A DNA stretch of 60,732 nt from Chromera velia (lineage: Eukaryota; Sar; Chromeraceae). The position numbers were made by a program, and so were the translations under genes. Location: contig JAHBMJ010005912.1 of assembly GCA_018398765.1 (NCBI GenBank), positions 7,501-68,232 on the forward strand. The letters run 5' to 3'. This document shows, in pieces, positions 1 through 59,551 of this stretch. The notes below the pieces were generated by a model. The model made no database searches and was not told where the DNA came from. It saw only the letters and a list, made by a program, of their open reading frames with translations. Numbering within the stretch: the stretch's first letter is position 1; each line of letters opens with the position of its first letter.

Positions 1-507
1 CGTTCAGGGGATCAGAAGGAAGCGGTCAGTAGCACTGGGGACTGTATCTGATGATTTGTTCCCTCGATCCGCATGTTTTGCGGTCGCTGTACGTGACGGC
101 AATCTTTGCAACTCAAAGACTTCGTTGAGAATGCAGGACCATCAGATCGGGCAGGAACGAACAAATCGTCAATACGTCTTCGCACAAAACTTTGCACTTG
201 GTCTATTCTGTTTGAGCTTCAGGCGATTTTGCGATCTTGATTTCTTTCTTGTCCTGCAAGAATACAGGTGAAACTCTGGTTTTGGCATTTCTCTGCGTGC
301 AGTTAGAGTCACTCGAACGTCTGGCGGATCACTGGGACCTCCAGATTCCCCATTTTCTCCGAGAGTTCGAGGGACCAGAGGTCTACGATAAATTTGATTT
401 GTTCCTAACAAGGAGCCTTTCTGCGCGATTGGACTCGGAGGATCTTCCTTCTTTGGACACGGTCAGTCAGTCAGTCAATTCAGTCTTCCAATGTCTCTCT
501 CCCTCTC

Positions 508-6596: not shown

Positions 6597-8842
6597 ATGG
6601 CACTCCTGTTAACAATCCTCCTGTGCGCTTTGATTTCATTTATCTGTTTGTTTCTTTTTTTCCTCTGTGCCGTCGTTTCCCGAAGTATCCATGCCCTGCG
6701 GCGTCTCCCACAGACTCCCGTCTCCTCTTCTTCTCCAGGAGACGCGAAAAGGAAACGAGTCGCAGTGGTCGTTCTCGGAGACATTGGAAGGAGTCCAAGA
6801 ATGCAGAACCACGCACACTCCATCGCCACCTGCAAAGAACTGAATTCCGACGTCTGCCTGGTCGGATATGACTCCTCGAAGCCCCACGCACGAATTCGGA
6901 CAAACCCAAACATCACCGTGTGCCCCCTTCTGCCTCCCCTAGTGGACCCGTACCGAAAATTGTTTCCGACCAAATTGGGTTTTCTCGTTTTTGCCTTCTT
7001 GAAGCTTTTTGAACAGACAGCCGGCCTCTTCCTAGTCCTCGCCCTAATGCCCAGACTGACTGCGATAGTCGTCCAGAATCCCCCGTCTATCCCCACTCTT
7101 CTCGTGGTCAACCTGGCCGCTCTTGTGAAGAGAGCCAAAGTCGTGATAGATTTCCACAATTACGGTTTCACCATCCTCCAGTTGGGTGTTGGAAAAGGCA
7201 CCATTGTGAGATTGGCAGAAGCATTCGAAAAGCTCTTCGGCAGGAGGTGCGACGCCTCGTTCTGCGTCTCTGATGCGATGAGGTCCGACCTGAAGGAGGC
7301 TTGGGGGGTGGAGAGACCCGAAGCGGTCGTCCTCTATGATAAACCGTCTGAAGTTTTCCGTCCCTGCAGCCTCCTAGAGACACATGAAGTCCTCTTCAGG
7401 TGTGGCCTCAGACCGAGTTTGAATTCTCCTCTGCCGCTGTCTGAAGGGACCCGACCGAAGAACGTTGATGTCCTCTCCCTGGAAGGGGGGCCGTCACAAG
7501 TGACTGAGATGGTGAAGAAGAAGGAGACAGCCTTGTCAAAGGACCACACAAGTTCAAATTCGAGTCAGCGTGCTGTGAGGGAGACGTTCGTTTTACCCGA
7601 GGGCAGTGCTGTGAGACCCGTAGGAAGGATGAGAGAAGAGGAACAGGTGGCAGAGGTGACTGTGTGCACGCGTCTTGTGCACGTGCGAGATGAAGGAACA
7701 GGCACATATGGGCACAGCTGTGTGGAACGTCTTGCTGAGAGTGGAGGAGGGAAAGGGCGGACAGACGTTCCTGTGCTTCTGGTCGGTCTCTTTCTTTCAT
7801 TCTTGTGTGTGTGTGTGTGTGTATGTGTGTGTGTGTGTGTGCATGACACAGAGAGAAAAAGAGAGAGGGAAAGGAGATAGAGACAGAGACAGGCAGACAG
7901 ACAAGCAGCGTGTTGGAAACGGATTAGCTTTCTCACGTTGACGTTGTTCTTCTCAGCTTTTCCTGTTCCCCTGTCGTTCTCTCGTGATGCATTTTTTAGA
8001 CTTGGTCACTTTGCCCGCCCGTCTGGAGTCTTGCGTACACCCTCTCCTGAAAGCGTTGGTGTGAATCAGTGCAGCCTCCCTCCAGAAGAAAATTTGTATT
8101 GAGAGAGCTGCAAATGTCTCAGTCTCTCTTCTCTCCTCTTCTCTCTTTTTCGTGTTCTGCTCTTCAGATGAGCTCGACCAGTTGGACAGCAGACGAAGAC
8201 TTTGACCTCTTCTGGGAGGTCCTCAAGATCTTCAGTGCAGAGAGGGAGAGAAGGAAAAAAGAAAACGAAAATGAGGGGTCGGATAAAGGTCAGTCAGCTC
8301 GATCAGTGGTTGATTCGCCTGATTGACGCACGCCGAGAGGGGATTCGATGGCCCTCTTTATTTCAGTGCTTCCCTCTTATCCCCTCTTGCGAGGACACTC
8401 ACTCTCTTTTCCGGTTTGAAACTGCACTTAACTCTCCTTTTCTGCGCTCATCTCTCCCTTCTCCCCCCACTCCTTCTTCTGTACGAGACAAGACGCAAAT
8501 GCAGGACAAGGGGGAAGAGGGGGGCCCCTCCCCTCTCTGATTGTTCTGATCACTGGCAAAGGCCCGATGCAGAAGGCGTTCATCGACAGGGCAAAGGAAA
8601 CGCCGCTGTCGGGAGTGCGGCTCTTCACAGGATTCGCCCCTGCAGAGGACTATCCTCGGTCGGTCGGTCAGGAGGGGGAGAGGGGTTCGTTTGTGCATGG
8701 GTGCGGACAGCAACGCATGAGGGGGCAGGATTCCTTTATGCATTCAGTCTTCTTTTCCCTCTGCGCAACCGATTGATGGGATGATCGATCGAGAGGTCTG
8801 CATCTGTCTCTTTCTCTTTCTCTCTGTTTGCGCTTGCGCTTT

Positions 8843-23256: not shown

Positions 23257-24220
23257 CTGACGTTTCTGCCTGCTTTCCTTCCTTCAATGTGTGTTTCTTT
23301 CCGTCGGGAATCTTTCCGTGTTTCTTTCCAGTTGTCAAAAGGCCGAGCTATTTTTTCTCTTCTTGACGCGGTGGTTTTCACTTTGCGTCAGGGATTTTCT
23401 CTCTCTCTCTCTCTCTCTCTCTCCATTCTTCGTTCTTCGTCTGCTTCCCCTTCTTTACTTGGGCTAATGCGAGAGCGATTTTCAAAATCGTGTCTTCTGA
23501 AAGCTTGGATGGTGAAATATCTGTTGATCTGTCTGCGTCCGTGGTAGAATGAAAGGGGAGAAGAAAAGGGAGAGAAAGGAAAATACTTGTAGCAGGGAAA
23601 AAGAGGTGAGCGTCTGGTTTTCTGATTGATGCAGAACCTCAACGGATCAGAAGTCTTTGTCCTCAGACAGAGAGAAGACAGGGACCTCGGGCGGAGAAAT
23701 TTTGGATTTGTCCGATGGCTGGAGGAATCTTTGATCATCTCGTCAGTCAGTCAGTGAGTCTATCTATCTATGCGAACAAGTGTCCGATCAGGCAGACATT
23801 TTCTCGTCAGCCTGTGAATGGACATTTGCTAGATTGTCTAGAGGGTCCGCGAGAATGTTGTCATTAGTTGTTTAGTCAACGTTTGGGTATCACTGTTCCT
23901 TTTGCACTTTCTCTTGTGTGATGGGGGTACAGCGAGTGATTCTCCGTGATTCTCCAGACGTTAAGGAGGAAAGAGGCAGGGACGAGCAAAGGAAGGGAAA
24001 CAAAGCGAGCGGTGAAGACGCCCCCTTGGATCCGTTCCTCCTCTTGCTTCCTCATTTCTGCGTGTCTCCTTCTTAATTTGGCCTCAGATGAGTGCTGAGT
24101 GCTGTCCATGTACTCTGTCTGCCGTCCTTCCTTTCCGTCTTTTTTTTTGTCCCTCTTTTTTGCCCTTAGAGGCCTTCACGTTTTTCCATATTGTCTGTCT
24201 GTCTGTCTGTCTGTCTGTCG

Positions 24221-24551: not shown

Positions 24552-26883
24552 TGTGTGGACGGATGGAGAAACATGCAGTTTGGTGAATCGGATCAGCGAG
24601 TCCTGTGAATCTGTGTTGCCTCGAGTCATTCCCTGGCGGGTGAGGGGAATCCTGGGGGGTCTTTTCCACGCATTCCGGGATCCTGACAGCGTCGACGAGA
24701 AGGTTCGTTCGTTCGTTGGTTGACTGGTTGGGTGGATGGTTTGTTCGCTGCATCGTTGGCGCGCGTGATTGAGCTCAATCACGATGATGATTTGCAGCAG
24801 TCATGAAAAGTGAAGCTGTCATGCCTCCTGTTCCATCAGAGCCCTGCACGGAAGTGACAGGGGAACAAAAGAAAAAGAAGTCTGTCTGTTTGGACAATCA
24901 ATCTATCATGTGATCAGCACCAGCAAGAGAGAGAGGGGCGAAGAAGAATTCATTTTCCGAGCATGGCCACCCTACTTCGCCGTTTCTCTTCACCCCCTTT
25001 TTTCTTTCGAGAGGATTGAGGAGACGGTTTCCCTCCGTTTCAAGACTGCCCAAATGCATTGTCCATCCCTCGATCCCCTTTCTGGAAGCAGACCGAGCTC
25101 CCCGTTGCGATCGACCCAATCAGCGTGAACATCACAGACTTCCAATCGAGGGCGTTCGCAGTCTCCAAAGTCTATCTGGAAATTCATAAGTCAGCATGCA
25201 GCCAGGAAGACACGCAGACAGACAGACAGGCAGGCAGGCAGGCAGGATGGATTCATGAATGAATGAATGCATGAACAATGAGTGAATGAATGAATGAATG
25301 AATGCATGAACAATGAGTGAATGAATGAATGCATGAATAATGAGTGAATGAATGCATGAATGAAGTGTCGATCCGGTGACGTCACCATTTCATTCATTTT
25401 CTGTCTTTGGGTCCCTGGGCATCGAAGGGGTATCTAGATGTAGTTGTCTGTTCAGTCTGTTTGTAGTTCAGTTGCATGGGTTCTCCCCTTGTCCCACATT
25501 TTGTTTTCAGACTGGAGAGCGGCAGCAGGCAAGACGGACGCCTTTCTTTTTGTTTGCATAAAGACTGGCAGGGAAGGAAGGACACACGATTTGGATTTTG
25601 AACAAATGACGACGAGGAGGGACAGAGGAAACAAAAGGCTTGGAACAGCAGAAGCACGATCGTCAACTTCTTCGTACTCATGCCCCACGTGAGATAAGAA
25701 CCGGGCGCACTGTGTGACCAAATCTCTAGAGTTGATCTGAATGAGGAATCATGACAGCACATATATTGTCTGTATGTTTAAACGCAGCGTTACCGTCACC
25801 CCTCGAGCAATCGCGCGGTTTCGAAGGAGGGCGCTTCTTCAGACGTGGAAGCAACTCGGGAACTGGACGAGGCTGTGGCCTGTTGAAGACGGGCCCATCA
25901 CCGATAAAAGTCTGGTCGGTCGGTTCATGAGAATATTCCTGTGGGGGCAAACGAACATTCTCTTTGATGTTGTTTTGGTCATTTTGGACAGGGAAAAGAC
26001 GGTTTTTCTTTCGTCTCCATCCGTGGTCTCTGGCATTTCCTTTTCAGCTCAAATTCGTGTTGCTTGCTTTTCTGAACACCTTTGTTCCCACGTCCCTGAG
26101 CGGTGTTCTTGTTCCTGTGCTTGACTCGCTGGCGGAGGTGTGTGCGTGTGTGGTTGAGCGAAACAATGTTGCAGGTTGCACGTTTTGTCTGTTTGTCTCA
26201 ACTGTCTGTCTGTCCGTCTATCTGTCTTGTTTGTTCGTTTGTTTGTTTGTCTTTCTGCCCACCTCTGCCCCCCGGGTTTCCCTTCAAACACGCGTTACTG
26301 AATGCGGACACGATTTTGCTTGCATCCACTCATTTAATTCGATCATTCGTTAATTCCGCAGTTGGAAGAGGAAATCTTCGGAGGACCCTTTAACGTCATC
26401 TTGGCTGCCTTCGTCACCCCAAATGACATCGCCAGATCCCCGTGTAAGTCAAGAGACGGAATTTAAGGGAGAAGAAGAAAGAAAATATGTTCTGTCTGTC
26501 AGACAGTCAGTCAGGCAGTCTTTCACTCAGCTCTCTGAGGGAAGGAAGAAGGGATGTGTTGGGGCATGAGAGAAGAAACAGAAACATTTGGAAAGAGGGT
26601 GTTGCCCTGTCTGAGGAGGGCACGCGAAGTGTCTTGCGAAGACCAGAAGGAAATCGAAAAAAAAAGCCAGAGAGAGAAAGAGTAGGACAAAGATCCGACG
26701 GAGAGTTTTTGGCCTTACATTTCACCCTGCTTCCATAAGGAGGGGACCCCATGTGAATGTTCAAGTACACACAGAATTGCACGCCCCTTTGAACCCCCAA
26801 AGATTTTTCCTTTGGCGAGGGCCGCGACTGATGCACGATCGACAAAGGACCTCTGCCTCCTTTCTTTGGAGAGAGACAGTCAG

Positions 26884-26929: not shown

Positions 26930-27198
26930 CGCGCGCGTGTGCGTGTTTAGGTGTCCAACATTGAACCAATCGCATGCCTGCAGGGTTGAGGACAAAGGTC
27001 CAACTGCTGATAAATCGGATGTTGGACAGATCGGGATTTCAAGGTGCCGTCACGGTCTGTCTTTGTCTGGCTGTCTCTCTTTGTCTGTGCGTCTCTGCAG
27101 GGTTTCCTTTCATTCCTGTCTGCTGCCGTCTCTGTTCAGTTCACACTTTCTGAGATTCGGTGTGACAGGGGGTCAAGGAGCGAATAGGCATACCTCTG

Positions 27199-27258
<60 letters not shown>

Positions 27259-28473
27259 TGTGTGTGAGTGTGTCTGCCCCAATCTGTCTATCTATCTGAT
27301 CATGTATCCATCTTCGGCGGTTTTTCTCTCTCTTTCTATTTCAATTCTGATCAATCTGGTCCAGTCATATTGTGTCTTTGCCGATGCGCACTTGTGTGTC
27401 TACCTGTTTGCCCTCTTGGAGACGCTCCTTTCTTGCCTGTCCGACAAACTGGAGGCAGGGAGGGAGGAAGCAAGAATACTTTCTCCTTTCCAGTTCAGTC
27501 CAATTCCCCCCCTCTCTTTGCTTACATCAGTCACTCTTCTTGATTGATTTGTTTTTTTGGGGGCCCATTCATTCCCTCTCGCAAATGGCTCTGACTGACC
27601 CGACGGAAAAAGAACGCGAATGATCCACTGAGCTGCATGATGAATGAATGAATGAATGAATGAATGAATGAGTGAATGAATAAGTGCATGCGCATGCAGG
27701 CCACCGTGACAGACCTCAGTGTCGAAAACGACTGCTTTGTGGCCGCGGTCGACATTTGTGAAGTGGGAACGATCAAACGGAGCAATAAGTCAGTGCGTCT
27801 CTTTAATTCTCTCATGCACTCCTCTTGATTCTCTCTCTGTCTCCCTCTGTTGCAACGAAAGGGAAACTTTGTTGGCTGGCTGGCTTTCGTGGAAGGCAAA
27901 GCTCAAGGGGGAAAGAGAGGCTGGATGAAATTGAGAGACAGAGGATCGATTCTCTTTCCCCCCTGTCTGTCTGTCCTTGTGCGTTTCTCCACTTGTTCTC
28001 TTTCCTCCGCCCCTCCTGCCTCTGGTTGCTTCCATGCCTGCCTCCCTGCCTGCCTGCCTGCAGGGTAGAATTTCGGGTCGAAAACATACAAAACAAGGGC
28101 GGTCAGGACGTCCTCAGGGTGAAGTCAGTCAGTCAGCCGTTGGGGCGAAGTGGCTAAACAAAGCACGATCGAGAAATTTTTTGCTCATTGGGATGTGTGA
28201 GAGTGCAGCGCTCTCTTCAGAAGTGCACGAGCTTCATGATTGCGACGTTGGGGGATTGACAGTGACTGTGAGGAGCTGCTGTGAGAGCGTGCAAATTTTC
28301 AGCATCAATTGTTGTGGTCCACTGGAAGGACGCCGTATGTGCAAGAGAGGCGTCATGCAAGACTTAATTCAGTCAGTCAGGCAGGCAGCAGGTGTTCTTC
28401 CTCCTGGCCTTCTGCGAACACGTAGAAAGTCCAAACTTCCTTGCTTACGCGCACACACCCCTTCTCTCTCCGC

Positions 28474-28524
<51 letters not shown>

Positions 28525-29026
28525 TGCAGAGATCTGAAACCTATCGGTAATATGTTGAGGTTCAAATTCAAAGAGACGGTAAGTCGAGTCGCTTCGAGGT
28601 ACATGGGTTGCGCAGAACTAAAAAGGGCGGCTTGGTGAAGTAAGGAGAAGGGCCTCGAAGTATGAGCCGCAGGAAAGAAGGCGAAGGAAGGCAAGAGAAG
28701 AGGATTGAAAGGAGAGACAAAGAAAACCGGCGAAGGGAAAAGAAATGTCGAATGTGCAGCATCATGTCTCTGAATGACTGTCTCTCTCCCTCTTCTTCCT
28801 CCTCCCTCGCCTTGCCTCTTTCAGCAGTGACGTTTCTCTCTCTTCGTTACTGCATGCGTGTACTGTTTGTTGTCTTTTCTTTTTTGCAGGACATCTCGGT
28901 CGGAATCGGGCGAGACACAAAGGCAGACCTTCACTTCACCGACAATGGGGTGGGTGGGTGGGTGGGTGGTTCGATTTGTCTGTCAGTGACTGCATGGTCG
29001 GGGGCTGTCTGTCTCTCCGTTTGTCC

Positions 29027-29067: not shown

Positions 29068-29778
29068 GATGGATGGATGGATGGATAGATGGATGCCTGT
29101 CCTGAATTGCTTTCTGACAATATGTGTTTGGAAGGGCAGGCGCAAGAGGTGCATAGGTTAAATGAGTGCGTTCGAGGCTCTGCCCCTCAATTGTTCCTTC
29201 CATTTGATTATGTCGTTAGTCGCTGCACCGACGCGCTCTCTCTCTTGTCTCTCTCCGTTCTAAGTTTCACTCTCTGCTTCTCTTCACTCTCCGACAGTAC
29301 CGTGACTCCTGCTTTTCCTCCCTCCAGCGTTTTGTTTTGTTCTGTTTTTGCGAGGGAAGGAGGAGATAAGGAAGAGACCAACTATTATTCACACACTGTC
29401 TCTCACTGATCGATGGACGAAGGGACGGAGGGATGATCGGATGAGTACTTAGATGAGTAATTACTTGCATGCAGGTATTCGTGCTTGCAAAGCTCAAGCT
29501 GGCTGTGCCTGATCGGCGACTGGTTGGTTGGCTTGCTCGAGTTCTTTCTTCTCTGCATTGTTTTTTTTGTGTTTTCTGTTTTGTACGCGCCGATTTTCTT
29601 TTGGGATTTGGTCGCCTCATTTTGGCTTTCTTCTCGTTTTTTTTTTTTTTCGGGACCTTCTTCCGTCTCCTTGTAGACTGTGTTTAGGGGGACTGCAACT
29701 TTTGTTGATTTCTTGGGTGGCGCACGCATTGCCCTGACACGTCTCCCGGTCCAGACATGCATCAGGAAGGAATTTTGA
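22695..29778 (+). CDS. probable secreted glycoprotein, 513 residues, 14 exons; family unknown
   Basis: I cannot name the family. Exons: 22695-23129, 23635-23741, 24579-24702, 25092-25189, 25788-25914, 26048-26137, 26362-26443, 26984-27054, 27700-27788, 28064-28123, 28530-28578, 28890-28949, 29475-29522, 29677-29778. All phases agree. Residues 1-20 form a signal peptide ending near TVCG. The first 100 residues are Arg/Ser/Pro-rich. After that the chain is globular, with hydrophobic helices (LKFVLLAFLNTFVP; ESVLPRVIPWRVRGILGGL) and, toward the C-terminus, alternating strands (DISVGIGRDTKADLHF; VFVLAKLKLAVPD). N-glycosylation sequons are visible at NGTS, NGSE, NITD, NVTV and NWTR, consistent with the ER route. 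A lipid-binding, BPI-like fold is one idea to test by structure prediction; there is no motif proof. The weakest joints are the GTCTGT donor at 27055 and the last exon. Confidence 0.72.
23219..23254 (+). repeat. (GA)n microsatellite
   Basis: Pure GA run in the first intron of the secreted-protein gene; a (CT)n run follows in the same intron at 23398-23423. Confidence 0.9.
24195..24253 (+). repeat. (TGTC)n microsatellite
   Basis: About 14 units of TGTC in the intron 23742-24578 of the secreted-protein gene. A (TTTG)n(GT)n array follows at 24464-24556 in the same intron, ending shortly before its acceptor. Confidence 0.9.
25216..25365 (+). repeat. (CAGA)n(GGCA)n and (GAAT)n array
   Basis: Intron repeat: CAGA units, then GGCA units, then GAATGAATG units interrupted by GCATGAACAATGAGT phrases that recur about every 40 to 50 bp. 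Confidence 0.85.
26886..26943 (+). repeat. (GT)n(GC)n microsatellite
   Basis: GT run followed by a CG run, shortly upstream of the acceptor at 26983. Confidence 0.9.
29024..29092 (+). repeat. (TGTC)n(GGAT)n microsatellite
   Basis: TGTC units followed by GGAT units in the intron 28950-29474, whose own donor is the start of a GTGG repeat. Confidence 0.9.
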
Positions 29779-31256: not shown

Positions 31257-31315
<59 letters not shown>

Positions 31316-35420: not shown

Positions 35421-35458
<38 letters not shown>

Positions 35459-35491
35459 GCACGCACGCACGCACGCATGCATGCACACACG

Positions 35492-35532
<41 letters not shown>

Positions 35533-37986
35533 GCGCACACTTTTCTGGGCGTGGATCCACTTCTGCTCTCTCTCCGCACAGACTTCGACCCGATCTACAA
35601 ACATGCTGCATGGATCGTTCACCTTTTTCGTCGCGTGCGCCCTTTACCTCACCTGCACATCTCTCTCCCGTGCCCTCTGCAGCTCGCTCAGTTGCGTTTC
35701 CCTCCTCACTGCTGCCTCCTCTGCACCCTTTCGTTGCCTTGTCAGATCCTCCACCTGCATTGAGTGAGCACAGAGAATATCAAGAAGACACAATGTCAAC
35801 ATTCCAATCTGATGAGCAGAAAATTTACCTTGCTGTATCTCCTTTTGCCGTGCCCAATTTTCCACTTTCATGGCAAGGAGACCATGCAAAAATGACCTTT
35901 TCTGTCACAGAGAGGACGGACGCCTTCAGCAAAAGGGGCCGAGGAGGAGACGAAGCAGCCGAAAGGAAAGGAAAGAAACCAAACGAAAAAGAGAACAGTT
36001 AAGAAAGAAAATCGACGACTCTCGACGACTCACTTGCGAGACCAGTTTCCTCCTCGCTTGTCTCAAAGACTCCACCTCCCCTTGAAGTCCCTGCATGCAT
36101 TACACAAAAGTGGAGAGGCAAGGAGAAAAGTAGGAGCAAAATGAAGAGATTTGCCGGCAACGTAAAAAGAAAAAGGGCACAGACGGGTAGAATAGAAGAG
36201 GAACGAACGGAACATGCAGGCAATGATTGCATTAATTGTTTTTTCCCACACACACCGAGGAGGGGAAAAAGAGCACAACCTCGCACTTCAAAAGAAGGAT
36301 GAAATGGAAAATCTGCGCACAGACAGACAGACCTTCAGTTGGTCCCTCAGATCGTTGTTGCGACGCTCCGCGCTTTCCACCTGGGCTCTGCGAAAACGCT
36401 CAAAGACACACACACACACACACAGGGGAAGTTAATCAGACGAATCCCGCAACGACAACACAGCACGTGACGGTCAATTCGGACGAACAGACAGGCGAAC
36501 TGTTCTTTCCATCGTTTTTGGTCAAGAGGGAAACGAAAAAGGGATTGGAGTGGCATAACATCATCCGTTTTTTTTTTCAGACTGATCACAATGCCTTGAA
36601 AGCACCAAAATGGAGGTTTGACTCACTTTGTTTTCTCTGCCATCTCTTGCATTCTCTGCCGAGCTTTCTCTGTCTGCTTCTCGGCCTCCTGAATCATTTT
36701 GTCCTTTTCAGCGACAACCGTCTTCATCCTGCACATGCAACCCAGCATCAGCAATCATGAGACAAATCTGTGCTGTCGCCGTCTGCTACCAAGTCCTCTC
36801 TTTCAGATCGGTTCTGTAAAGCCAGCCCTGAAGTTCTTACTGATGCTCCCTTCATGAAAAAAGCGGATTGGAAAGGAGCGAACGGGGCAAAAGTGAAATG
36901 CAAATCACATAATGTCCCTTCGCCTCTCTGGCTCACTGATGCAAGCTGAGTCTCTCTCTCTCATGACGCACCTACCCTCACAGCACAGGAATCACACAAC
37001 GCAGGAACACAAGATCGCAGACAGCCGAAAGAAAACTTCTCATAATGACAACCTCGAACGACCAACAAGCTGACTGACAAAAGAAGAGCCCCCACCTCCC
37101 CCTCTTTCTCTCTCTCTCTCTCACAGCGAGGGGGAGAGAGAGAGCACAGAACGACTCACTCACTTGTTGTCAGCCTGTTTGAGGACGTGTAGCTCTCTCG
37201 CTTGGGCTTCGTGTTCTGCGTGGGTCTGCAGACGCTCATGACAGAGGACAGGGTGGCAAGGGACTGACTGAGAGAAGGGTCTCATGTTCCGATCAAAAGG
37301 TGCATCCTGCTCTGTCTGTCTGGGCTGTATCCACTTGCACGAGATCAAGTGTTTGTACATACGCGTGCCGGTCTGTGTCGGTACACAAAACGTACATCGC
37401 TTTTTCTCATCAGATTTCCTTCCACCCAAGCATGCGTGTGTGCATTTCCCTTTTTTGAGAGAGCCCGCCCCCTGATCGACCTGCAGTTCTTCCAGTGCGG
37501 TCTGCATTGTCCTCAGCTGTCTCCTCACTTGTTGCTCTGCCTCCTGACGAGTCATGTCGACAAGAAGGTCAGCCTCTTTCTGCACACTCAAAAAAAGGAA
37601 TTTCACAATGGAAATAAGGGCTTCAGGGGCATCAAAGGAGGAAAAAGAGACGGGTAGTCACATAAGGCAGATCCGTTTCTCTTGTTTTCGTTGACGAGTC
37701 AAATAATTTTGCGCGCAAACTACTGAGGGACCATCAAAGCACCGTTCTGCTGCAGATTTCAGGCCAAGAAACATTCCACGCTTCCATCCCTTTGTGTGGT
37801 TCGCTCCTGATTGAGAATTTCAAGCAGACTCACAGATTTGATCTTCCCCCTGACTGCCCCTCTGGCCGCCAGACTTCCTGATAGTTAACTGACTTTTGTT
37901 GTCATTGCCTTCTTCTCCAGAGCCACGTTCTCTTCCCCAATCTCCTCCATGTCCTTCATCGATTTGGTCAACTGCAAAAAGTGGAT

Positions 37987-38024
<38 letters not shown>

Positions 38025-41000
38025 ACAAGCAGAAGAGAAGGAAAGCGTGTTCATGTACATGTCGGGCGAATCCGAATGTCTTGTTCGACCTCCTACAGAA
38101 GCGAACACTTGGCAGGAGGTCCTCCCGCAGCCCCGCATGAACAAAGAGAGGTTGGATCTAATTCAAGAGACCGACTGAGAGAGAGAAGACGCGCGCCATT
38201 TTTCTCGCTAAGCAGTCTCCTCCCTCCCACCCTCCCTCCCTCCCTCACGCACCGACCTGCCCCTGAAGGTCAGACAACTTCCGACGGAGATCCGATGCCT
38301 CTCTGCAGGAACACAGACAGACAAATGATTTGACAGGCAGGCAGGTAGTCAAACGGACACGCAGGAAAGGCATCTTCACTCTAACAGTACAGACAGTGGA
38401 GTCGGAGGGTACCACGGTTTCTTCTTCATGTCTCAAGGTTGTATGAAGGCTTAATGAATGAAGGAAGCACGTCGCCAGAGACACTCGTATTTCATCGGCT
38501 CCCTGCCCCCCACTTTCCCTCCTCTTTCCTTCTTTCACTGAAAAAACCAACAGCTTCTTCTCCTACCTCTCCGTCCCTTCTTTGCCTTTGGTGACCAACC
38601 GTTCCGCCTGTGCGCTGACAGGAGCCACCGCCTCGCACCCGATTCTCTCCACTGCGTGTTCGAGGAAGGTCTGCAGTGTGAGTGAGGGTCATACAAATTA
38701 CCGATGCATTCAGGCGTACGTGTGTCGCTCGCTTCACGCCTTTTATTTAACCTACATGCATCATGACCATGAGCAAAAGAAAAGAAGGAAGGACAAGTGC
38801 GGGCGGAGGACCTGCAGACGAAGAAAGACCCGAACTGCCGCGAAAAGACACCCAATAGCGAAGGAAAGAAAGGCAGAAATGCAGAGAGAAGGGAGGACGC
38901 AAGTTATCCAGACAAGGGATGCGAAAGGCCCCTGCATGCAGACTCTGTCCAAAAGGGCATGCATGGACAATATGGAGAAGATCTAGCTGACATTCTCGAA
39001 TAGAAATTGCCATCTCAACTTCAGGCCCCACCTGAAAATCCTTCATCAGTTGCGGAAAGTCGTGGTGCCTCTCCGTTGCAGGGGCCGCGAATCCCGCCAG
39101 TCTCGGCGCCGCCTTCCAGATCGACACATCTGCCCCTGTCCACTCCGAGGTTCCCCCCTTTGCCCTCCCCGCCCCCTGAGTGAAATGTCCGGCTGCCTGT
39201 ATGGACAGAGGAACCGCAGCTGCAGAGGGAGACACGATGCGCGTCCTCAACCCCTCGTCCATGCGCAGGCCAGAGGAGAGAATGCCGAGGAGTTTGTCGA
39301 TGTGGGTGCGGAATTGGACGGCACCCTCCACTTCCTGCAGAGAAAAAGGAAGGATCTTGTTGCGTTTTTGTGCTTGCAGATAGCTGGTTGAAATGACATA
39401 AGGAGAAGGGGGAGGAAGAACGCGATCGTGTGTTTACACGGGTAAGGCCAGCGGAGGCATGAGGCAAAAGTAGAAAAAAAGAGAGGAGTACACGATGATT
39501 CTGTCTTTCTTTGCATTTTGTGAGACTTTTCTCTGAGGTCATCGGGCTCTCTGGAGTTTGTGGAGAAATCACGATACCAACACTTGCAGAGGAGGCCTTC
39601 TCTTCTCTACTCATTGGACATAAGAGGGAGGATGCATGACAGAAAAAGATAGAATAAAAAAGAGAGATAAAAAAGCTGAGAGCTGCCTTCCCTCGACCAA
39701 TTCAGAGAAAATAGAGAGGAAGAGGAAAACTGAATAGAGAATAGTCAACCTACCGCGAGAGCCTCCCTGCAGGTGTCCTTCACCTCTTGGAGCTCTTCCC
39801 GGAGACGTGCGTGCTCCTGCACGTAGACAGGCAGAGAGACAGACAGACAGACGGTCAGAGGGCAATTCAGAGAGGTCGAGAGATTTTGAGGGGGTTAAAA
39901 GAGATGGACAAGCAATATGAACAAGGAAAACCAATTGACGACACAAGATGAAATTGAGAGATAGAAGTCAGAAAAGAAATGAAGGGGACTAAAGTCGATT
40001 TTCAAAGCTTCAATTACGAGCCAAAAACAGAGAATCACGAGAGAGACAAGTGTATCCAAGAAGTGAAATTTTTTGGGCATGACCTAGGATGGGCCTGGCC
40101 TAATCTAGAGGGCATGCGAGGTATTTAACAAATAGCGAAGAAGGACAGGACACATGCCTAGACAAAGATGCATACCGGCCCGATGCAGGACCGGAGAGAC
40201 ACTAAAAAAAGTATCCAAGAAGAATCTCCCATAAGCCCATGCACCCCACCTGCGCCATGGTCCCTTCACTCTGCCTCTGGCGCTCCTGCTGCAAGGTGAC
40301 TGCTCGTTGCAGTACCAGACCTGCATGAAAGGGATGGGGGGCAAGAGAGGGGGGAAACAAGCTTCGGCTACAGCAGTAGGACGGAAGGCTGACTGATGCA
40401 CGACTTCCTTCCTTCCTGTACGTTTTTCCATTGGGAGACGCGACACATTCCTTCCTTCATTTTCAGAAGAACGAACGGCAGCTTCCGATGTGTGTGATCA
40501 GGAAGGCTTCTTTTTGCTTTTGCTTTTGTTGAAGCAGAGGAAAGCCTAGAAGGTCAAGACCTTCTTCAGAGAAAGAAATTCTGCTTTCTCTTTTCATGTG
40601 TGAGCTGCACCGAACCGACACACACAGGAAGAGACGCTCTTTTCTTTCTATTGTCGATCACACCCTCTTTTGGCGCTGAAGCCTTTTTCATTTGCACGCA
40701 GTAATCTTTTGATCTCACTATTCCTTTTCACATTCAATATACGGAAGCCTACCTGTATTGGCCATCAAAGTCTGCACCTCACTTTCCACGTGCAGACGGA
40801 CGTACGATGCCTCCCTCCCCAAGGCTTCTATCTGGGCCCTTGCCACTGTGCGGAGACGCTGGAGGGCATCCGCCATCCTCCTGTGCCTCTGACCGAGAAC
40901 GCGCAGTTCGCTGCTCGTGTCTCTCTGCTCATTGGCTGCGTCCTCCAAACGGGCACGCAGACGGTCGCACTCAGCCAGGGAGGCCTGCACGCAGAGCCAC

Positions 41001-43793
41001 TCGCCACACAGATAGAGGTGACAATTGCGTTCAGCGTCTTTCTTTGCACCTCAATTCCATTTTTGCACGACGGGTTCTTTCCGTGTGCTCTCTGGTGGAA
41101 AAGATGATGAGATTCTTTCGAGTGTGTTTGCCCGTCCTCCCTTTCTGAACGTGTTAGGGTCGAGAGGCAGCTGTACAAAATGGAACAAGCACTGAGAGGG
41201 AAAAAACAAAAAGACAGGACCCTCCCTCCGTCTCCTCCAACCAAACTGCCATCGGAACTTTAGCCTCTGAGATACACACATTCCCTCCCTCCCCCCCTCC
41301 CTCGTTCCCTCACTGACTGACTGACTGACTGACTGACATCGAGTCTCTCACTGAGGTCGTCTGCCTTCTCCCTCAGGATCGCATTCTCCCCTCCCAGACG
41401 GTCGCAGTCTGATCTCACAGCCGCGGTCTCTGCACTCAGACGCTCTATCTCTACAGTGTGCTTCCTGCAAGGAGGGAGGGAGGGAGACCGAAACAGAAGA
41501 AAGAGAGGTTTCACTCTCAATACTTCTGCCGCTGTGTCCATAGAATAGTCTTCTGGCGACTTCCCCTCCCTCCGACCCTCTCTGCCTTCTCAAAAGAGAG
41601 CCATGCGTACTCGAAGTCACCCTGGCGACACCCTTGAAAGAAAATCCCAAACCCAGAAAGAACACCGAGCCTTCAGTGTCACACATGCAGGTAGAAAGTC
41701 CTTTCTTTTGATGCACAGATGCCGATACAGCCCCGCATCGAAAAAGAAAGTCAGAAATTCGCACAAAGCCCGTGTCGATTGAAGAGGGGCATTGAGACTT
41801 CATGAGAAGGAAAACCGAAAACGATAGGCGACGCAAAAAACTGACGCTGCTGCCGCCTCTGCCGTCTGGGATTGGACCTGCTGCACCTGTGTGCAGAACT
41901 CCAGCTCCGTGTCTCGCAGACGGGCCTCGACGTCCTGCCGAAACAAGACACAAGACACAAACAAACAAACAAACAAACAAAGAAACAGGGGAGGGAGGTA
42001 CGAACATGCATGTCCGGCATGCCTGTTAGCTTATGCAGTTGCAAACGACAAACTGATGTTGACAAGAAAGCCAGGAGGTTCCGAAATGAGATGGAGAGGT
42101 CGTGACTCAGATGAAAGAGCTGATGCACTGCTGTGAGATCGATTATCGAAAAACCTCCTTTCCATGCATCTGACCGTTCTCTTTTTCCTCTCCTCCTCTG
42201 CCAGTGTTCTGGTTGCCCTCAAATTCTCTGCCGTCTCCTCCAGAGATGAGGCCAGGGCCTTGCGGGAAGTGGCAATCTCGGCGTTGTTCTGCTCTGCCTG
42301 TTGGAGTCTGCATCCATCCATCCATCCATCCATCCATCCATCATCTTGCAAGAAGCCACAGGAAGTAAAGAGAATTGATTCAGGCGCTTCCTTTGGGTGT
42401 CCTCAGCGTCCTTCCCTTGCAAGCAACACACTCGCTTCGACTTCAAGAATGGTGGAGGTTCGAAGCCACGAACAACACACTGAACAAGAGATAGATGGTT
42501 TGGGGGAAAGGGGAAGGGGAGAGAGACGACAGACGTCTGCACAGAGAGAGAGAGACAGACATTCTATTCGTAAGAAAGGAAAGAAAGATTCAATGCGACT
42601 CCTTCCGTTCGTCTACCCCGGCTCTCTTCCCTTGTCTCCCCAAATTCTCTCTAGCTCTCTGACGCACCTAGCACGGAGTGCCTCCCTCTCCTTCCACGCT
42701 ACCCCTCTGGACTCCTCAAGAGCCTGCACTCCTCTCCGGATCTGCTGCAGGGCCCCTGCAAACTCGGTTCTCTTCCTCTCCTCAGCCGCCCTCACCTTCT
42801 CTCGGACCTGCATGATCATCTCATCAGATAGACAGGAGGGAAGGGAAGAAGGGCACATGCAGAAAGAAAAAGTCTGCATGTTGTGAGAAATAAGAATCTG
42901 GTTTCCATCAGACATGGGTGACAAGGAGTGCATGACGGAAAAGGGGGGCGCCCACTCGCACCAACTACTCCTCACCACCCTTGCGTCGTAGCGTGTTTTT
43001 CTGGGTCACCTGTGCTTGCAGTTGTGTAGATGTACACATATACACACAAGTGGACTCGCGCGCGCAAAACGAGAGAGCAGGAAGAAAAACCGACGGCAAC
43101 AAAGTAACCAACCAACCGACATACCTCATACTGGAACTTCTCCTCGAGAGACCTCAAGGACTGCCTGTGGGAAGCGTCGGCCTGCTCCATCCTCTCATTC
43201 AACACCTGCTGGTGTTTCTCTAGAGAGATGGACCCACGCAGCTGCAGACAGCAAGACGGACGGACTCGATCAATCCTTTCATTCGTCGTCATTCTTCGGA
43301 ATGAGTCAAGAGGCGATGGCACTGATTTGAGGAAACAAACTCCCCACTCGTGTACAAGGAGCTGAATGAAGAACAATCACACAAAGAGCTTCGCTGGAAG
43401 GCAGGCAGCCAAATAGACTGACGACGGACAGAGCCTGTACTGTTTAGAGGACTTTATGAGCAACACCTGTCAGAAGAAATCGCCAACCCACCTGAGAGGT
43501 TGCTTGTGCCTCCACCAGTGCCAATCTTCCCTGAAGTGCAGCCCTTCCCTTCTTTGCCTTCTCAAGCTCCGTCACCTGCAGAAAGGGAGGGGAAGAAAGC
43601 GAAAAGGACGTAGAGGAATAAAAGAGGAACACACGGGGGAAGAAAGCAACGAGCAACGGGGGGGGGGGAAAGCTCTCTGTCTCCTGCTACATAATTCAAA
43701 TATGAATGGTGGAGTTGTGTGCGTCCACAACAGAGAAACGCATGTCTGTTTCCAATCGAGCGCACAGAAACATACACACACACACACACCATT

Positions 43794-43834
<41 letters not shown>

Positions 43835-46800
43835 AGAAAGAAAGACAAAGGCAGACCGACCTGATCTTTCAATCTTTGGAGAGATGCCTGCGGGCAGGGA
43901 GAGAAAGAGAGCAGACAAAATTGGAGAATGATGTGCGCTGACAGAGAGAGCGGGAGACAAACTCAATTTCTGTTCTCTAGCTCTCGTCTCCGTTACTCAT
44001 CCACCAGGTTCCCATGGAAAAACAAACAGACCGAGAGACCGAAAGGCGGACAGACAGACAGACTGCATTTTTCCTTCTTCTTCTTCCACATTGAAATCTT
44101 TGCATGTCCTCTCCACTTGCCCCCCCACAACTGAAATAAATATCCACCAAGGTTTTAGTTTGTCTCCGTTGACCAGGAAGGAAAAGAGAACTGACACAAC
44201 ACATGCACAACAAGGCACTTACCTCCAGAGTGGCCCTGTGCTTCTTTTGGAGTTCTAGTTTCTTCTGCAAATCGGAAAATAACGCAAAAAAATGTGCAGA
44301 ATTCTACATGGAAGGACACACAAAAGGATGAAAGGGTAGGTGGGTGTGTGGGTAGATCAATGGGGATGCGGCAAACGGCCGGGTGACTGGCAGGAAGCCT
44401 TCGGGAGGTGCACGGGGCTGCCCCAACGAATCTGATGCAGAGACAGTGGCCCCTCTGTCCTCTGTCTCGGAGGGGAACTGAATGACTCACTCTCTCACGG
44501 ACACGTGCACCCATGCATGCACCCACCTTTGCGTCCTTCACCTTCCCCACCAACAGCCTGATGGTCTCGCTGGCCTCCCTTCCCTCCTCCTCGAGATATC
44601 TGCAGACAGGCAAGGAGGGAGGCAGAGAGACAGAGAGACAGAGAGGAAGATTTCCTTCCTGTACTGTCTGTCGAGTGTTTGTTTGTTCGTTGTGTTTGTT
44701 CATTGCGTACACTCACTCCTTCTGCCCTTCCATGTGTGCGCGTTTGTCTCCAGATGGCTTTCTGTCTTTCTTTCCGCTATAGCCTCCACGGGCTTTCTTT
44801 CTCCTTTCACTTCTGAGATCCCCCAGACACATTAATTCTTGCCTTCTCTCCAGGACACTCGGCTAAGGTGGGGACACCAAAATGAAACCACCACCACCAA
44901 AAACAACGAAAATCCAGTGCCCGCCCACCTCTCCACGTGCTTGTACTCCACCTCAAGAGATCCCTTACTCTCGTTGGCCTCTCCCAGAGATTTCTCTGCA
45001 GGGAAAGTCGAAGAAGGGGAGTTAGAGAAAGAGGGAAGGAGGCGGAACACAAGGAGGACAGGGATAGGTGAAAAAGCACGAAGCTAGAGAGTTGACAGAC
45101 AAATAGGGAAAGAGAGAAAAAAAAGGACGCATGAGGAGGTCTAGAATGGAGAGCGGCGAGTCTTTCTTGTGGATCAGCAACTTTGACTGACTACCCAAAT
45201 CAAGTCAGGCGCTCTGTCGATAAGCGAACGAACCACTACGCATGTTTGAGACCAACGCGCGCAACAGAGTTATTTGACATACTTAAATTTTGAAACAGGC
45301 ATTTATTTTTCCTCTCACTCACAGAGAAGCTCAACCCACCAACCCACCCGCTTCCTTCAACCGGAGCTCCAGGTCCTTCTCCCTCGAGGCGCACTCGTCC
45401 AACTGCTCTGCCACCTGACGCCGCTCTGCCACTGAAGCCTCGTACCTGCATCCATGCACCGATGTATACCCACCAGCATGCAGGATGCATTATACACGGG
45501 GGGGGTGGAATTCGTTCTGGATGTGTCCATCTTTTTTTTTTTGCGCCTCAGCCACACGAAGATGTTGTGCTGCTCTAGCTTCGAACGTGCAAGCGCGAGC
45601 GCTGTGTCAGTCTCGCTCCCTCTCTCTCCTTTCTCTTCTCCGTGATTGTGTGTGTGTGGGGGNNNNNNNNNNNNNNNNNNNNNNNNNNNNNNNNNNNNNN
45701 NNNNNNNNNNNNNNNNNNNNNNNNNNNNNNNNCGCATGTCGGCTTGCAAGACGGCTCGCATAAATGCTCGTTGGTTTGCTTGCTGTCTGCTTGGCTACCT
45801 GCCGGTGTGGCTGTTTGCATCTCTGTGCATTCATTCATCTCCACGTGCCTCAATGCCCCCGTTTTGCGTCGGTCGTCTCTGTGGAAAAGAAAAAGACGAT
45901 CTAAGACAGGCGTCTATGCAGTCGGCGAGGTTCTTTTACAAGATTCCCCCCGACTGACCGTCTCTTGTACTCCAGCGCTTCGGCCTGCGCACTAATGACC
46001 TCAGTAGCCTGAGAGCATCGGTCGAAAAAGGGTTCGGAAAAGAAAGCAACTATATCCAAACGGAAGAGGGAAAGAGAGAAATGCATCCACGCAAACACAA
46101 AACCAAGAGAAAGAAATTGGGGCCTCATTCAAACAAACTGTGGTCTTTTTGTCATTTGCTCCTCTCCTCTCTTGGACTCTAATGGACATTTCCTTCAAAT
46201 ACAGGGAGATCGGCTTCCCGGTTCAATGGTTTCCCTCCCACATTTTGTCTTCTTGGTGCTCAGACGAATGCTGTGTTCATTGATGGATCACTACACATCC
46301 CTGTCCAGTTCTCATACCCACAGTTTGCTGTTGTTCCGTTCGAGTTGTTGCCAGCTGCAGTACAGCACAGAGAGGCCAATAGAAACACGTACGCACTCAT
46401 TTCTACATGTATGTATTTGAAAAGAGACAGGCCGGAGCACAGAGCAGAAGCGATGAGCCGACACAGGGAGAGAAGAAAGGAGAAATTCCTGAAAACAAAG
46501 ACATTTTTGGTGATGTGCAAGAAGGAATGGAAGAGCCGATACGAAAGGAACCGAAAGAAATGGAATCGACAGGATACAAAGAAAGAAAAAAGAGAGAGAA
46601 AAGCATGCGAGAAGCACACCAGAGAGGCGAGGGAGAGAGGGTGCCGAGCGAGTGGATGGGCTCTGGCGTCGTTTGTTTCGTTATTGAAAACCGGAAAGTA
46701 CAGTCGAATCAAACAGAAGAGAAGCTGACCTGAGAGTCTCTCGCTTCCAAAAAGGCAACACGCTGCACAATCAAGTCGACAGGAAGAAGCACAAGACATA

Positions 46801-47458
46801 CAGGAAGGCAGAAAGGTTCGGGGCAAGGGGGAGGTCTGTCAAAGAAAGAACGTGGGATGGGAGAGCCAAATGGAAACGAGATGGATGGAACTCTGGGTTT
46901 GACAGACTGTCACACCGTCTCATCCGCCCCATAACTCAGCCTTCCCTCTATCCCATCATTGTCTCTCAGTCAAAGGGGGCAAGAGGTTTCAAGAAGAAGG
47001 CCAAAAGGCAAAGGTGTTCACAGACGCTGACTGAGCAATCAGAAGAGCAGAAAACGTGCAGGGTTTGCGCGAGAGTGCGGACCTTCATGAGTGTCTGTAT
47101 TTGCGCTTCCCTCTCAGCAGCCAGGTTGGATTCCACCACCTCCTGCATCCTGTCTGGTACGAATGCCTGGCTGTTGGGGTCCTCTCTTAACGCTTGGAGG
47201 GCCTCGTCTGTCTGGAGTTCCCTGTAGATCTGCCGCACTCTGTCGGTGAGGGACTGGACCCTCTCCTCGTACAGCCGCTGCAGATGCTCCATCTGCTCCT
47301 GCACCGGTGGGTAGCAGAGAATAGATTAGAAGCGGGAGAACGAAATGCAGTCTCAAGGCCTCTCCTTCGAGAGCAAAGCAACAGTTGTAGGATGGCTCAG
47401 TCTGACTACACACGTAGGACGAACAAAGACCGACCCTGTAGAAGTCTTGCTGCTCCAT
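33471..47458 (-). CDS. 1093-residue coiled-coil protein, 32 exons; function unknown
   Basis: Exons in transcript order: 47458-47435, 47298-47083, 46762-46730, 46008-45959, 45445-45348, 44995-44929, 44812-44717, 44599-44527, 44264-44223, 43887-43861, 43575-43492, 43241-43125, 42807-42668, 42307-42175, 41934-41846, 41464-41338, 40984-40753, 40320-40250, 39816-39754, 39334-39032, 38670-38567, 38302-38257, 37971-37894, 37579-37481, 37225-37164, 36728-36627, 36387-36333, 36090-36034, 35754-35653, 35220-35149, 34650-34595, 33834-33471. Every phase agrees and the sum is 3282 bases. The protein starts [14 protein letters not shown]. It is almost entirely heptad-like, rich in Glu, Lys, Arg, Gln and Leu, and broken by one globular-looking 101-residue exon (39334-39032). 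It ends in a Ser/Gly-rich basic tail ([16 protein letters not shown]). This resembles structural proteins of centrosomes, cilia or cytoskeleton in general style only; no family is claimed. Confidence 0.87.
34145..34305. repeat. (GACA)n array
   Basis: Long GACA/GACC array on the plus strand, that is (TGTC)n on the sense strand of the coiled-coil gene, in its last intron. Confidence 0.9.
35038..35130. repeat. perfect 31-bp tandem, three copies
   Basis: Unit CAAGCAGAACGAATGCATAG followed by ACAAAGACGGA, repeated three times inside an intron of the coiled-coil gene, close to the donor at 35148. Confidence 0.9.
35396..35532. repeat. (CA)n(GCAC)n array
   Basis: CA and ACGC units in the intron 35221-35652 of the coiled-coil gene; sense strand is (GT)n(GCGT)n. 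Confidence 0.9.
43778..43829. repeat. (CA)n and (GA)n runs
   Basis: Short CA run followed by a GA run in the intron 43888-44222/43576-43860 area of the coiled-coil gene. Confidence 0.85.
45663..45732. other. assembly gap of 70 N
   Basis: Lies in the intron between exons 46008-45959 and 45445-45348 of the coiled-coil gene. The left flank is a GT run ending GGGG, so a collapsed microsatellite is likely. Phases across the gap agree, so no coding exon need be missing. Confidence 0.95.
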
Positions 47459-54000: not shown

Positions 54001-57000
54001 TGCCCGATCTCCTCTCAGTGGGTTCGGACGGAGGCTCATGGAAGGGCAGGGGCAGGCTCATCAGGGGGGGGGGGAGGGGTCTGGAAGATCTAGTCGGGGA
54101 ATGGCTGTGCAGAGTAGGAGGGAAGGGCGAGAGTACGGGGACGTGGGGGATTCAGTCGAGAAGGAGAAGAAGGACTCATGGTTGACTGGGCTGAGTGTGG
54201 AAGAGGAAGAAAAGATGAAACAGCAGTTTCCTGCAACTTTCGCTTTCCTGTCGGGAGTCGGTCGAACTGAGTCGGGGTCCTCGATAAAGGGGGAGGGAGG
54301 GGGGAGTCGCATGCATTCAGCAGAAGCGAACAGGAGGGAGGGGATTGAAGGACGTGCAAAGGAGAGAGGGGGGACCGAGACGCCCCCCTTCCTCTTCCTG
54401 TCCTCTGACGAAGTTTCTGATCCTGTCGGCAAAAGAAGAGACTCTCTGCTGAACCCTCCGTCAGTCGGAACAAGACGAGGGGGATATTTGGAAAACGAGA
54501 AAGAGAAGGAAAGAGAGAAAGAGAAGAAAATGGATTTGGATGGAGACTTGGATCCTCTCGACACCCTTTTGGGTCTCCGAAAGCGTCTCGATAGAATTCG
54601 CCTTGGCAGGACGGCCGCTGAGGGGGGTGCTTTAGATGCGGAGGGGGGAGAGAAGGACAGAGAGGGGGGTATAGGTAGTCGTGGGAGTACAGGAAGTGGA
54701 GGAAGTGCGGAGGGAATTTTGCAATTCGACCGGTGGATGTCTGCAGCGTCTAACACGGGGGGGCGTCCTCCAGTGCCCCGCAGGTTGTTGGGGTCAAAGA
54801 GGGTAGAGGAGTTGCCTTTGGGTGGTTCCGATGCTGCAGATGATTTGATTGATTTGATGCAGAAGCACAGGATGGAAGCCAGAGAACGTCTTGATGGGCT
54901 GGAAAGGGAAAGGGAGATTGAGAGAGAGAGGGCGAAGGATGAAGCTCGAAGAGTGTCGATGTTTGTTGATTCTCCGGTGGATGGGGATGAGGGGGTAAAA
55001 GAAGGGAACAAAGGTCGATCGTCCCATCTTGACTTATCAGATCTTCATTTAGATTCAGAGGAAGACGAAAATAAGGAAGGGGACTCAGACGATGATAGTT
55101 CGTCTAGTGACGAGGATGATCACCTTGAATCGATCCTTGCAAGTCTGGGGGGCATTGGAGAAGAGAAGAAAAGGCAGAGACGGAAGAAGGGAAAGAAGAA
55201 AGGGGAAGATAGTGAGCTGCCTTCGTGGCTTCGCTTTGCCCTTGGAGAAGACAAAAAGGGACGGTCCCAGAAGGCAGGTCTGCATGATGAGGACGAAAAC
55301 GAAACCGATCCTTTACGTCTCGTGACCCCCTCTTCAGTTCTTTCCTCAGCGTCTTCCCAGAGTTCTTCCTCCTCCTCTTCCACCCCCTCACCCTCAGAGG
55401 ATGAGCTTGCAAGGGAGCTGGAGGGTCTCTCGGATCCCTCAGACGAAGAGGAGGAGGCAGCAGGGGGGGCAGAGGGTGCAGCTGGGGGGCTGTCCGCCCT
55501 TGGGGGGGGGCTCTTGGGAGGAGACGGGGCAGGGGATAGCGACGAGGACGAGGGGGGGCAGGAGGAAGGAGAGGCAGCGCCTGTGGACTGGCAGAAGACC
55601 CTGGAGAGGGCACTATCTCTGCTCAATACTGAGGTCAGCCGGATGCATGGATGGGGTTGCAGAAAAGAAAACCAAAAACAAAACAAATGGAGAGGTGCAG
55701 TTGTATGGTTCATGTGAATGCTCGGACGATATCGGAAGAAGCCATGCTCTCTTTCAATAGGTTCTGTAGGTCAAGTTTTTTTCTCAAGAAATCTCTCTGA
55801 CATTCGCTCACTCGATTCTTCTCGTGCTTTTGTCTGTCTCGCCATTCTTATTGATTATCTTCCCCGAAACAGAGAAAAGGGTCGATGTAGGAAGAAGTGT
55901 TTGAGTGGTTGAAAGCGTTCAGCAGATAGTCGGATTCTCTTCTGTTTCCTTTCTGGCTGGTGAAGTTTACCTCGCACTTATCACCGCCCTCCCTAGCCTT
56001 TCCTTCTGACTGGCTGTCTTCTGCCCCCCTTCTTTTTCTTCCACCGTTTCTCTTTCCCTTCTTCCCTCCCTCCGCATGCCTGCAGGGTCTGTGTCAACTG
56101 GCGTCGATTGCTTCTGCGTTCATTTCCTTCTGCGAGAAGACGGCGGAGGCCATCGAGAGGACCTACAGGGGACTGGAATTTGAAGTCGCACTGGCATTGT
56201 CAGTCTGTCTGTCTGCCTGGTGTCTGGCCGGTTTTCACTGAAGCTTCTTTTTCCCTGCATCTGCCGGCGCGTTTTCTCGTATTCTCTCTTGCACCCTCGT
56301 CTCTCTACTCTCGCCTCAAGGCTTCTTTCGACTCGCCAGCCAAGGGCGCATTTCCTCTTTCTGATGACCTGCCTGCCTGCCTGCCTGCCTGCCTTCCTTG
56401 TCTCTTTTTCGAAGCGTGTGTTGCGTGCGTCGATGGGCATGCTGATGAAGAGGGCATTCCTATCCATCCAGTGGATACCTGTTCCGTTCCCTTTTTTATC
56501 TTTTTACAGTTTCGGCTTGGAGCGGCTGCCCAAGAGTAAGAAGGAGCTTCGACGGCGCTTCCTCGAACTGTCCCTGAAACTGCACCCCGACAAGAACCCG
56601 AACGCAGACGCACAGGCAGCAGAGGACTTCCAGATGTTGCAGGTCTACAAGGAACAACTGGATGTGAGTCAGTCAGTCGAGTACCGATTGATTCATTCAG
56701 AAAGGCAAGCTGGCAGGCAATTGAGAACATCTGCAGATCCGTCCTGTGTTACATGGTCGGGAGGGAATCAGAATACGGGCCTTCGATGAGTCTAGTCTGG
56801 TCCGCTTTTTTGTTCTGATGCATGATGTTTCTCTGCTTGGGTGCGTGGGTGAGTGAAAGGAGAATTCAGAGGAGCTGTGTCGAAGCGCAGGCAATGTGAC
56901 GCACTTTATTTATAGCGTTGCTCAGAGGTGCGGGCAAAAAGCCTCTATCATCGATCGACTGAATTCACTCCTCTCCTCTCTGCATGCAGAACGAGATCGA

Positions 57001-59474: not shown

Positions 59475-59506
<32 letters not shown>

Positions 59507-59517
59507 CTCTCTCACTC

Positions 59518-59551
<34 letters not shown>

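What the first reader, a model, noticed from the sequence alone, without database searches (positions are those of the whole stretch)
41312..41337. Introns that begin with a tandem tetranucleotide repeat of their own splice donor
Several introns start with a 4-bp repeat whose first unit is the donor. Seen directly: (GTCA)n at 462, 23742, 28124 and, on the minus strand, from 41337 down; (GTTC)n at 24703; (GTGG)n at 28950; (GTCG)n at 8659 and 25915; GTTG units at 29523; GTCT units from 36332 down; GTGAGTGA from 37163 down; GTGAGTCAGTCAG at 56664. Phase analysis fixes the exon end exactly at unit one. Four-base spacing would give a ladder of alternative donors, each shifting the frame. The repeats may have been seeded by slippage at the donor or left by intron birth. 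I know of no described class of this kind.
Basis: partly seen in the sequence, partly recalled or inferred. Interest (0 to 1): 0.78.

Follow-up and report, generated by a model that had tools for sequence, protein, structure and literature searches.

The report
Four-base repeats that abut splice donors
Some introns in this genome really do start with a four-base repeat of their own splice donor, but much of its non-coding DNA shows the same four-base rhythm, so the donor repeats are best read as ordinary repeat slippage that happens to start from a normal GTNNGT donor.

Summary
The strings are real: all 12 cited places read as stated. A self-trained gene finder gave 203 distinct introns of at least 100 bp; 143 of 203 donors are GTNNGT and 10 of 203 start a perfect tetranucleotide array of at least 12 bp. 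Conserved proteins (CCT gamma and delta, threonine synthase) put exon ends at unit one.

The 'class of introns' reading is only partly supported. Arrays start at donors 25 times as often as at a random intron position, but intronic GTNNGT sites that are not donors start arrays about as often (27 of 501 against 4 of 89). Hexamer-matched expectation is 6.6 against 7 seen; stricter controls are mixed, so a mild donor excess is not excluded. Lag-4 identity is 0.371 in intron interiors (shuffled 0.267) and 0.336 in unassigned DNA, against 0.257 in exons. It is significantly higher near acceptors, not near donors.

LHC paralogs share an intron position but carry different units: arrays grow on existing donors. 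The U1 5' end is canonical. Best account: genome-wide tetranucleotide slippage, seeded by GTNNGT and stopped by the exon. Use of downstream units needs RNA.

The parts
462..477 (+). (GTCA)4 at a candidate donor
   Evidence: unit one best among the units but 2.0 below the best path
8659..8669 (+). GTCGGTCGGTC at a donor of an ALG1-like gene; exon ends at 8658
   Evidence: the gene finder prefers unit 3 by 2.8, recalled ALG1 protein favours unit one
23742..23755 (+). (GTCA)3.5 at a candidate donor; unit uncertain
   Evidence: unit 2 preferred
24703..24717 (+). (GTTC)n at a candidate donor
   Evidence: unit one best among units, 4.8 below best path
25915..25924 (+). GTCGGTCGGT at a candidate donor; unit one or two
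28124..28136 (+). (GTCA)3 donor array
   Evidence: on best path at unit one
28950..28969 (+). (GTGG)5 at a donor; unit one or the in-frame unit four
29523..29531 (+). GTTGGTTGG donor
36319..36332 (-). (GTCT)3.5 donor array in a coiled-coil gene
37154..37163 (-). GTGAGTGAGT donor
41312..41337 (-). (GTCA)6.5 donor array, 26 bp, the longest at a donor in this set
   Evidence: unit one preferred by 4.4 over the next best unit (unit 4)
56664..56678 (+). GTGAGTCAGTCAGTC at a donor of a J-domain gene

Best explanation
The donor repeats are microsatellites that grew by replication slippage from the donor itself. The donor consensus of this genome is close to AG|GTSAGT, so about 70% of donors are GTNNGT, which is already one and a half units of a tetranucleotide repeat (shown). 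The genome slips strongly in four-base steps throughout its non-coding DNA (texture shown; slippage as its cause inferred). At a donor such growth runs into the intron only, because the exon on the left is held by the protein (exon side shown free of the texture; selection inferred), so the array starts at unit one. Added units give further U1 matches of similar strength (U1 is canonical), with the first presumably still used because that keeps the frame (inferred). Splice sites elsewhere in the intron texture look the same: any intronic GTNNGT starts such arrays about as often.
For: Period-4 texture: lag-4 identity 0.371 in intron interiors, lags 3 and 5 0.281, dinucleotide-shuffled 0.267 (sd 0.001), harmonics at 8, 12, 16 and on to about lag 48; 164 of 193 introns have lag 4 above the mean of lags 3 and 5. 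It survives masking of perfect arrays: 0.337 against 0.284 at lags 3 and 5. Unassigned DNA with N left out: 0.336 against 0.275 and 0.274. Exons 0.257. Whole genome: (GTCA)4 occurs 9397 + 9356 times and (CTGT)4 19301 + 18524 times, overlapping hits counted, against 5 + 1 for one period-5 word of equal length (its reversed control 18 + 11). Donors: GTNNGT in 143 of 203; GT at offsets 0, 4, 8, 12, 16, 20 in 1.00, 0.73, 0.25, 0.18, 0.15, 0.12 of 158 model-A donors, mostly 0.03 to 0.08 off phase; hexamer-matched decoys show the same (0.25, 0.24, 0.19, 0.20 at 8 to 20). In situ growth: different units at one shared intron position. U1 5' end AAACUUACCUG. Exon ends at array donors inside gapless conserved protein: CCT gamma, 22-bp array, C3586:14831; CCT delta, C809:38361; threonine synthase residue 268.
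Against: With left-edge controls a mild donor excess appears at some lengths (at least 10 bp in models A and B; at least 16 bp in A and B) and not at others. The donor model of A and B includes letters +3 to +6, so those models favour GTNNGT; model C, without them, still has GTNNGT in 64 of 141 donors. No RNA was available, the gene finder was trained on about 0.3 Mb with unknown accuracy, and slippage itself was not observed: no polymorphism data. Intron lengths show no period of four (47, 44, 43, 39 by remainder), though texture that decays within about 50 bp would not force one.
Confidence: 0.75

Rival explanations
1. A real donor class: arrays at donors are kept by selection because several stacked GTNN units raise U1 occupancy or give a tunable ladder of alternative, frame-shifting donors.
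For: 25-fold excess over random intron positions; left-edge controls give a two- to three-fold excess at 10 bp in two of three models; donor arrays use a distinct unit spectrum (GTCA family 7 of 30 against 3 of 128).
Against: No excess over hexamer-matched sites at 12 bp in three models or in the final set (4 of 89 against 27 of 501); donor-zone periodicity not above mid-intron (p 0.21); paralogs at the same position with no array.
Confidence: 0.12
2. Scar of intron birth: introns arose in or from tetranucleotide arrays or by tandem duplication, and the donor array is what remains.
For: Both intron ends carry a phase-locked comb: GT downstream of donors and TG upstream of TGCAG acceptors (TG at -5, -9, -13, -17, -21, -25 in 0.77, 0.39, 0.25, 0.27, 0.22, 0.23 of 158).
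Against: Shared LHC intron positions with different units or no array; no donor-acceptor direct-repeat excess (k 6, 7, 8: 61, 30, 13 of 150 against 63.7, 27.4, 9.6 shuffled); unassigned DNA has the same texture.
Confidence: 0.06
3. Introner-like mobile elements whose ends are the repeats.
For: Introners with direct and inverted repeats are reported in alveolates (Amoebophrya, PMC7789003, passages seen).
Against: No donor-acceptor complementarity: 52, 21, 5 of 150 against 55.7, 22.2, 8.3 shuffled at k 6, 7, 8; many different units at donors. Shared intron-body sequence families were not searched for.
Confidence: 0.02
4. Gene-finding artefact: donors are drawn to GT-rich repeats.
For: Unit choice is uncertain at 4 of the 12 cited places.
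Against: Gapless homologous protein across array junctions in CCT gamma, CCT delta and threonine synthase; the comb appears also with a donor model of GT alone and with the exon side only.
Confidence: 0.05

Closest known systems
GYNNGY tandem donors (human and mouse; PMC4267661, passages seen)
   Same: Two GY dinucleotides four bases apart at the exon end; use of the second shifts the frame. Very common as sequence: 122,198 human sites, of which 796 (0.65%) are alternatively spliced.
   Different: Here the motif is often extended to three or more units in a genome with a period-4 texture. Use of a second unit is not shown.
Tetranucleotide microsatellites and cryptic simplicity (concept recalled; one search gave only a listing)
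   Same: Tandem period-4 arrays with degenerate surroundings in non-coding DNA.
   Different: The period-4 signal is in most introns examined (164 of 193) and remains after perfect arrays are masked.
EMAST, tetranucleotide instability in MSH3-deficient human tumours (abstracts in the listing)
   Same: Instability biased to four-base units.
   Different: Somatic in tumours; here a germline texture. MSH3 status of this genome not resolved.
Introner elements of Amoebophrya (PMC7789003, passages)
   Same: Repeats at intron ends in an alveolate.
   Different: Those have inverted repeats pairing the intron ends; tested here and not found.

Membership tests
GYNNGY tandem donors | second GY four bases after the donor GY | tested here: met
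   GTNNGT in 143 of 203 predicted donors; with a donor model blind to +3 to +6, 64 of 141
GYNNGY tandem donors | both sites used in vivo | not testable with these tools
   no RNA data
Tetranucleotide microsatellite | tandem period-4 array | tested here: met
   10 of 203 donors start an array of at least 12 bp
Tetranucleotide microsatellite | length polymorphism between individuals | not testable with these tools
   one assembly only; paralogs differ in unit
Introner elements | inverted repeats joining the intron ends | tested here: not met
   52, 21, 5 of 150 introns against 55.7, 22.2, 8.3 shuffled
Introner elements | many near-identical copies at unrelated positions | not tested
   no all-against-all intron comparison was made
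Introns born by tandem duplication or from an array | array present from birth, so shared by homologous introns | tested here: not met
   L025 GTCC-type and L028 GTTG-type at one position; other shared positions with and without arrays; few cases, predicted gene models
Separate class of donor-phased repeat introns | donor-phased 4-mers enriched over mid-intron sequence | tested here: inconclusive
   enriched over random positions, not over hexamer-matched sites at 12 bp, mildly over left-edge controls at some lengths

The most novel reading that the evidence does not exclude
The genome has an inherited bias to slip in four-base steps (for instance through altered MutS-beta mismatch repair), and because the spliceosome reads GTNNGT at the donor and TG-N-N-TGCAG at the acceptor, splice sites here sit in phase with that rhythm: donors can gain or lose whole U1-matching units in one step, giving ladders of frame-shifting, and every third unit in-frame, alternative donors that evolve by slippage.
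Probability: 0.15. Interest if true: 0.65.

Novelty: new variant of a known kind. Interest (0 to 1): 0.4.

Why it matters
The arrays show a plain route by which the common GTNNGT donor can turn into a many-step ladder without any new machinery. The wider observation, a period-4 texture in most introns and in unassigned DNA of one genome, gives a natural test of what sets the step size of microsatellite slippage, and warns that donor repeats must be compared with consensus-matched intron sites, not with shuffled sequence, before a new intron class is named.

Tried and rejected
First gene-finder run had reversed seeds, because loci of minus-strand matches are not turned round (mended). Looser penalties gave many false introns. 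Intron length modulo 4: flat. Pairing or direct repeats between intron ends: none above shuffled. Altered U1 as the reason for GTCAGT: rejected, the U1 5' end is canonical. Raw lag-4 value of 0.373 for unassigned DNA was inflated by 8,565 N in 154,921 letters; replaced by 0.336. MSH3 loss as cause of the texture: not resolved. MutS_V matches lie on five contigs (12 matches at E up to 1); MutS_I gave none at 0.001 and three at E up to 10, best 0.002, on two of these contigs; sequences could not be fetched, so MSH3 and MSH6 cannot be told apart. Organism: 177.8 Mb in 4040 contigs, 58 LHC matches, a uL15 protein whose shown alignments include a close match to 5xxb (which I recall as Toxoplasma) suggest a photosynthetic alveolate. 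Chromera velia is my guess; the published assembly is 193.66 Mb in 5953 scaffolds and its authors note many low-complexity regions (PMC4501334, passages). Not proven; an rRNA search failed and was not repeated. Literature: searches listed no paper that I recognised as describing donor-anchored tetranucleotide arrays; I saw listings, and passages of three papers only.

Full report
What was checked. The window is C3983:7501-68232 of a 177.8 Mb eukaryotic assembly. No Rfam family reaches its gathering score in the window.

How introns were found. No annotation or RNA was at hand, so I wrote a small exon-intron dynamic-programming gene finder with codon-phased Markov models, trained on LHC matches and then on itself. 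The sequence was the window, 30 LHC loci, and 15 ten-kilobase-class stretches; four CCT gene regions were added later. These stretches were chosen on contigs already named by earlier searches and are not a random sample; several of the contigs carry LHC genes. With a donor model of GT alone, GT at +5/+6, +9/+10 and +13/+14 emerged unasked. With the exon-side model the same comb remained.

What the donors look like. In the final set of 203 distinct introns of at least 100 bp, 143 donors are GTNNGT, led by GTCAGT (49) and GTGAGT (21). Perfect period-4 arrays from the donor of at least 8, 10, 12, 16 and 20 bp occur in 38, 20, 10, 5 and 3 of 203. In loci of recognised families (a label given by locus, so a few genes may not belong) the counts are 23, 13, 6, 3 and 1 of 108. 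The comb of GT in phase with the donor fades by about +40.

Exon ends are real at several arrays. CCT gamma: the junction at C3586:14831, with a 22-bp GTCA array, lies within a gapless stretch of the alignment to human-type CCT gamma. CCT delta: C809:38361, gapless nearby. Threonine synthase: residue 268, gapless against two solved structures; residue 304, gapless against one and next to a one-residue gap against the yeast one. uL15 residue 98 and LHC L043 residue 164 lie within a few residues of small alignment gaps, so they fix the end less tightly.

Is it special to donors? Against a random intron position, arrays of at least 12 bp start 25 times as often at the donor (10 of 203 against 176 of 89,931). 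But the donor is chosen for GTNNGT. Against intron sites with the same six letters there is no excess at 12 bp in any of three models, and left-edge GTNNGT sites give 4 of 89 donors against 27 of 501 interior sites. Left-edge, hexamer-matched controls show a mild excess at 10 and 16 bp in models A and B but not C. I read this as no separate class, with a mild excess not excluded.

The wider phenomenon. Lag-4 identity is 0.371 in intron interiors, with harmonics, against 0.281 at lags 3 and 5 and 0.267 after dinucleotide shuffling; 164 of 193 introns show it. It remains after masking perfect arrays (0.337 against 0.284), is present in unassigned DNA (0.336 against 0.275) and absent from exons (0.257). 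It is strongest just upstream of acceptors (0.462 at -40 to -6; excess 0.151 against 0.086 in mid-intron at -56 to -17, p 0.0004) and not significantly raised at donors (0.104, p 0.21). Acceptors read TGCAG with TG repeated upstream every four bases. In introns the arrays are strand-biased: CTGT 635 bases against ACAG 185, CTTT 554 against AAAG 42. Genome-wide, (GTCA)4 has 18,753 overlapping hits and one period-5 word of the same length has 6; one word is a weak control.

How arrays arise. At one shared LHC intron position and phase, L025 has GTCCGTCCGTC and L028 has GTTGGTTGGTTGG; at other shared positions an array faces a plain donor. GTCA-family arrays are concentrated in the first 60 bp (7 of 30 against 3 of 128). 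Both fit growth in place from the donor's own first letters. The exon side stays free of the texture (0.255 in the last 40 exon bases). U1 snRNA has the usual 5' end, so GTNNGT is explained by ordinary pairing at +5 and +6 (pairing recalled).

Limits. Gene models are predictions; no RNA, no relatives, one assembly. Statistical tests are not corrected for their number. The mechanism step 'slippage' is inferred from sequence alone. The cause of the four-base bias is unknown; a mismatch-repair change is an idea that I could not test.

Noticed in passing
intron acceptors, several loci: Acceptors read TGCAG and carry a phase-locked TG comb every four bases upstream; period-4 identity peaks there rather than at donors.
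   Followed up: partly
window 12726-12800, 27194-27273, 28463-28526, 31241-31322: Composite microsatellites in the order CT repeat, TG repeat (once followed by a GA repeat), reported by TRF; CT and GA arms could pair.
   Followed up: no
window 30245-30870: A 51-bp minisatellite of 12 copies, 93% matches.
   Followed up: no
window 6561-10800 (+): ALG1-like glycosyltransferase gene split by several introns; Pfam glycosyltransferase models match the joined protein.
   Followed up: partly
window 31769-47458 (-): Predicted long coiled-coil gene of 29 exons in model A; extent differs between models.
   Followed up: partly
window 53639-59998 (+): Predicted gene with a J-domain.
   Followed up: partly
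L054, L055, L056: One U1 snRNA gene above the gathering score with 5' end AAACUUACCUG, and two weaker copies, one lacking the 5' end.
   Followed up: yes
contigs C3485, C1317, C3611, C3475, C2838 of G000: MutS ATPase-domain matches on five contigs; a mismatch-recognition domain is weakly seen on two of them.
   Followed up: partly
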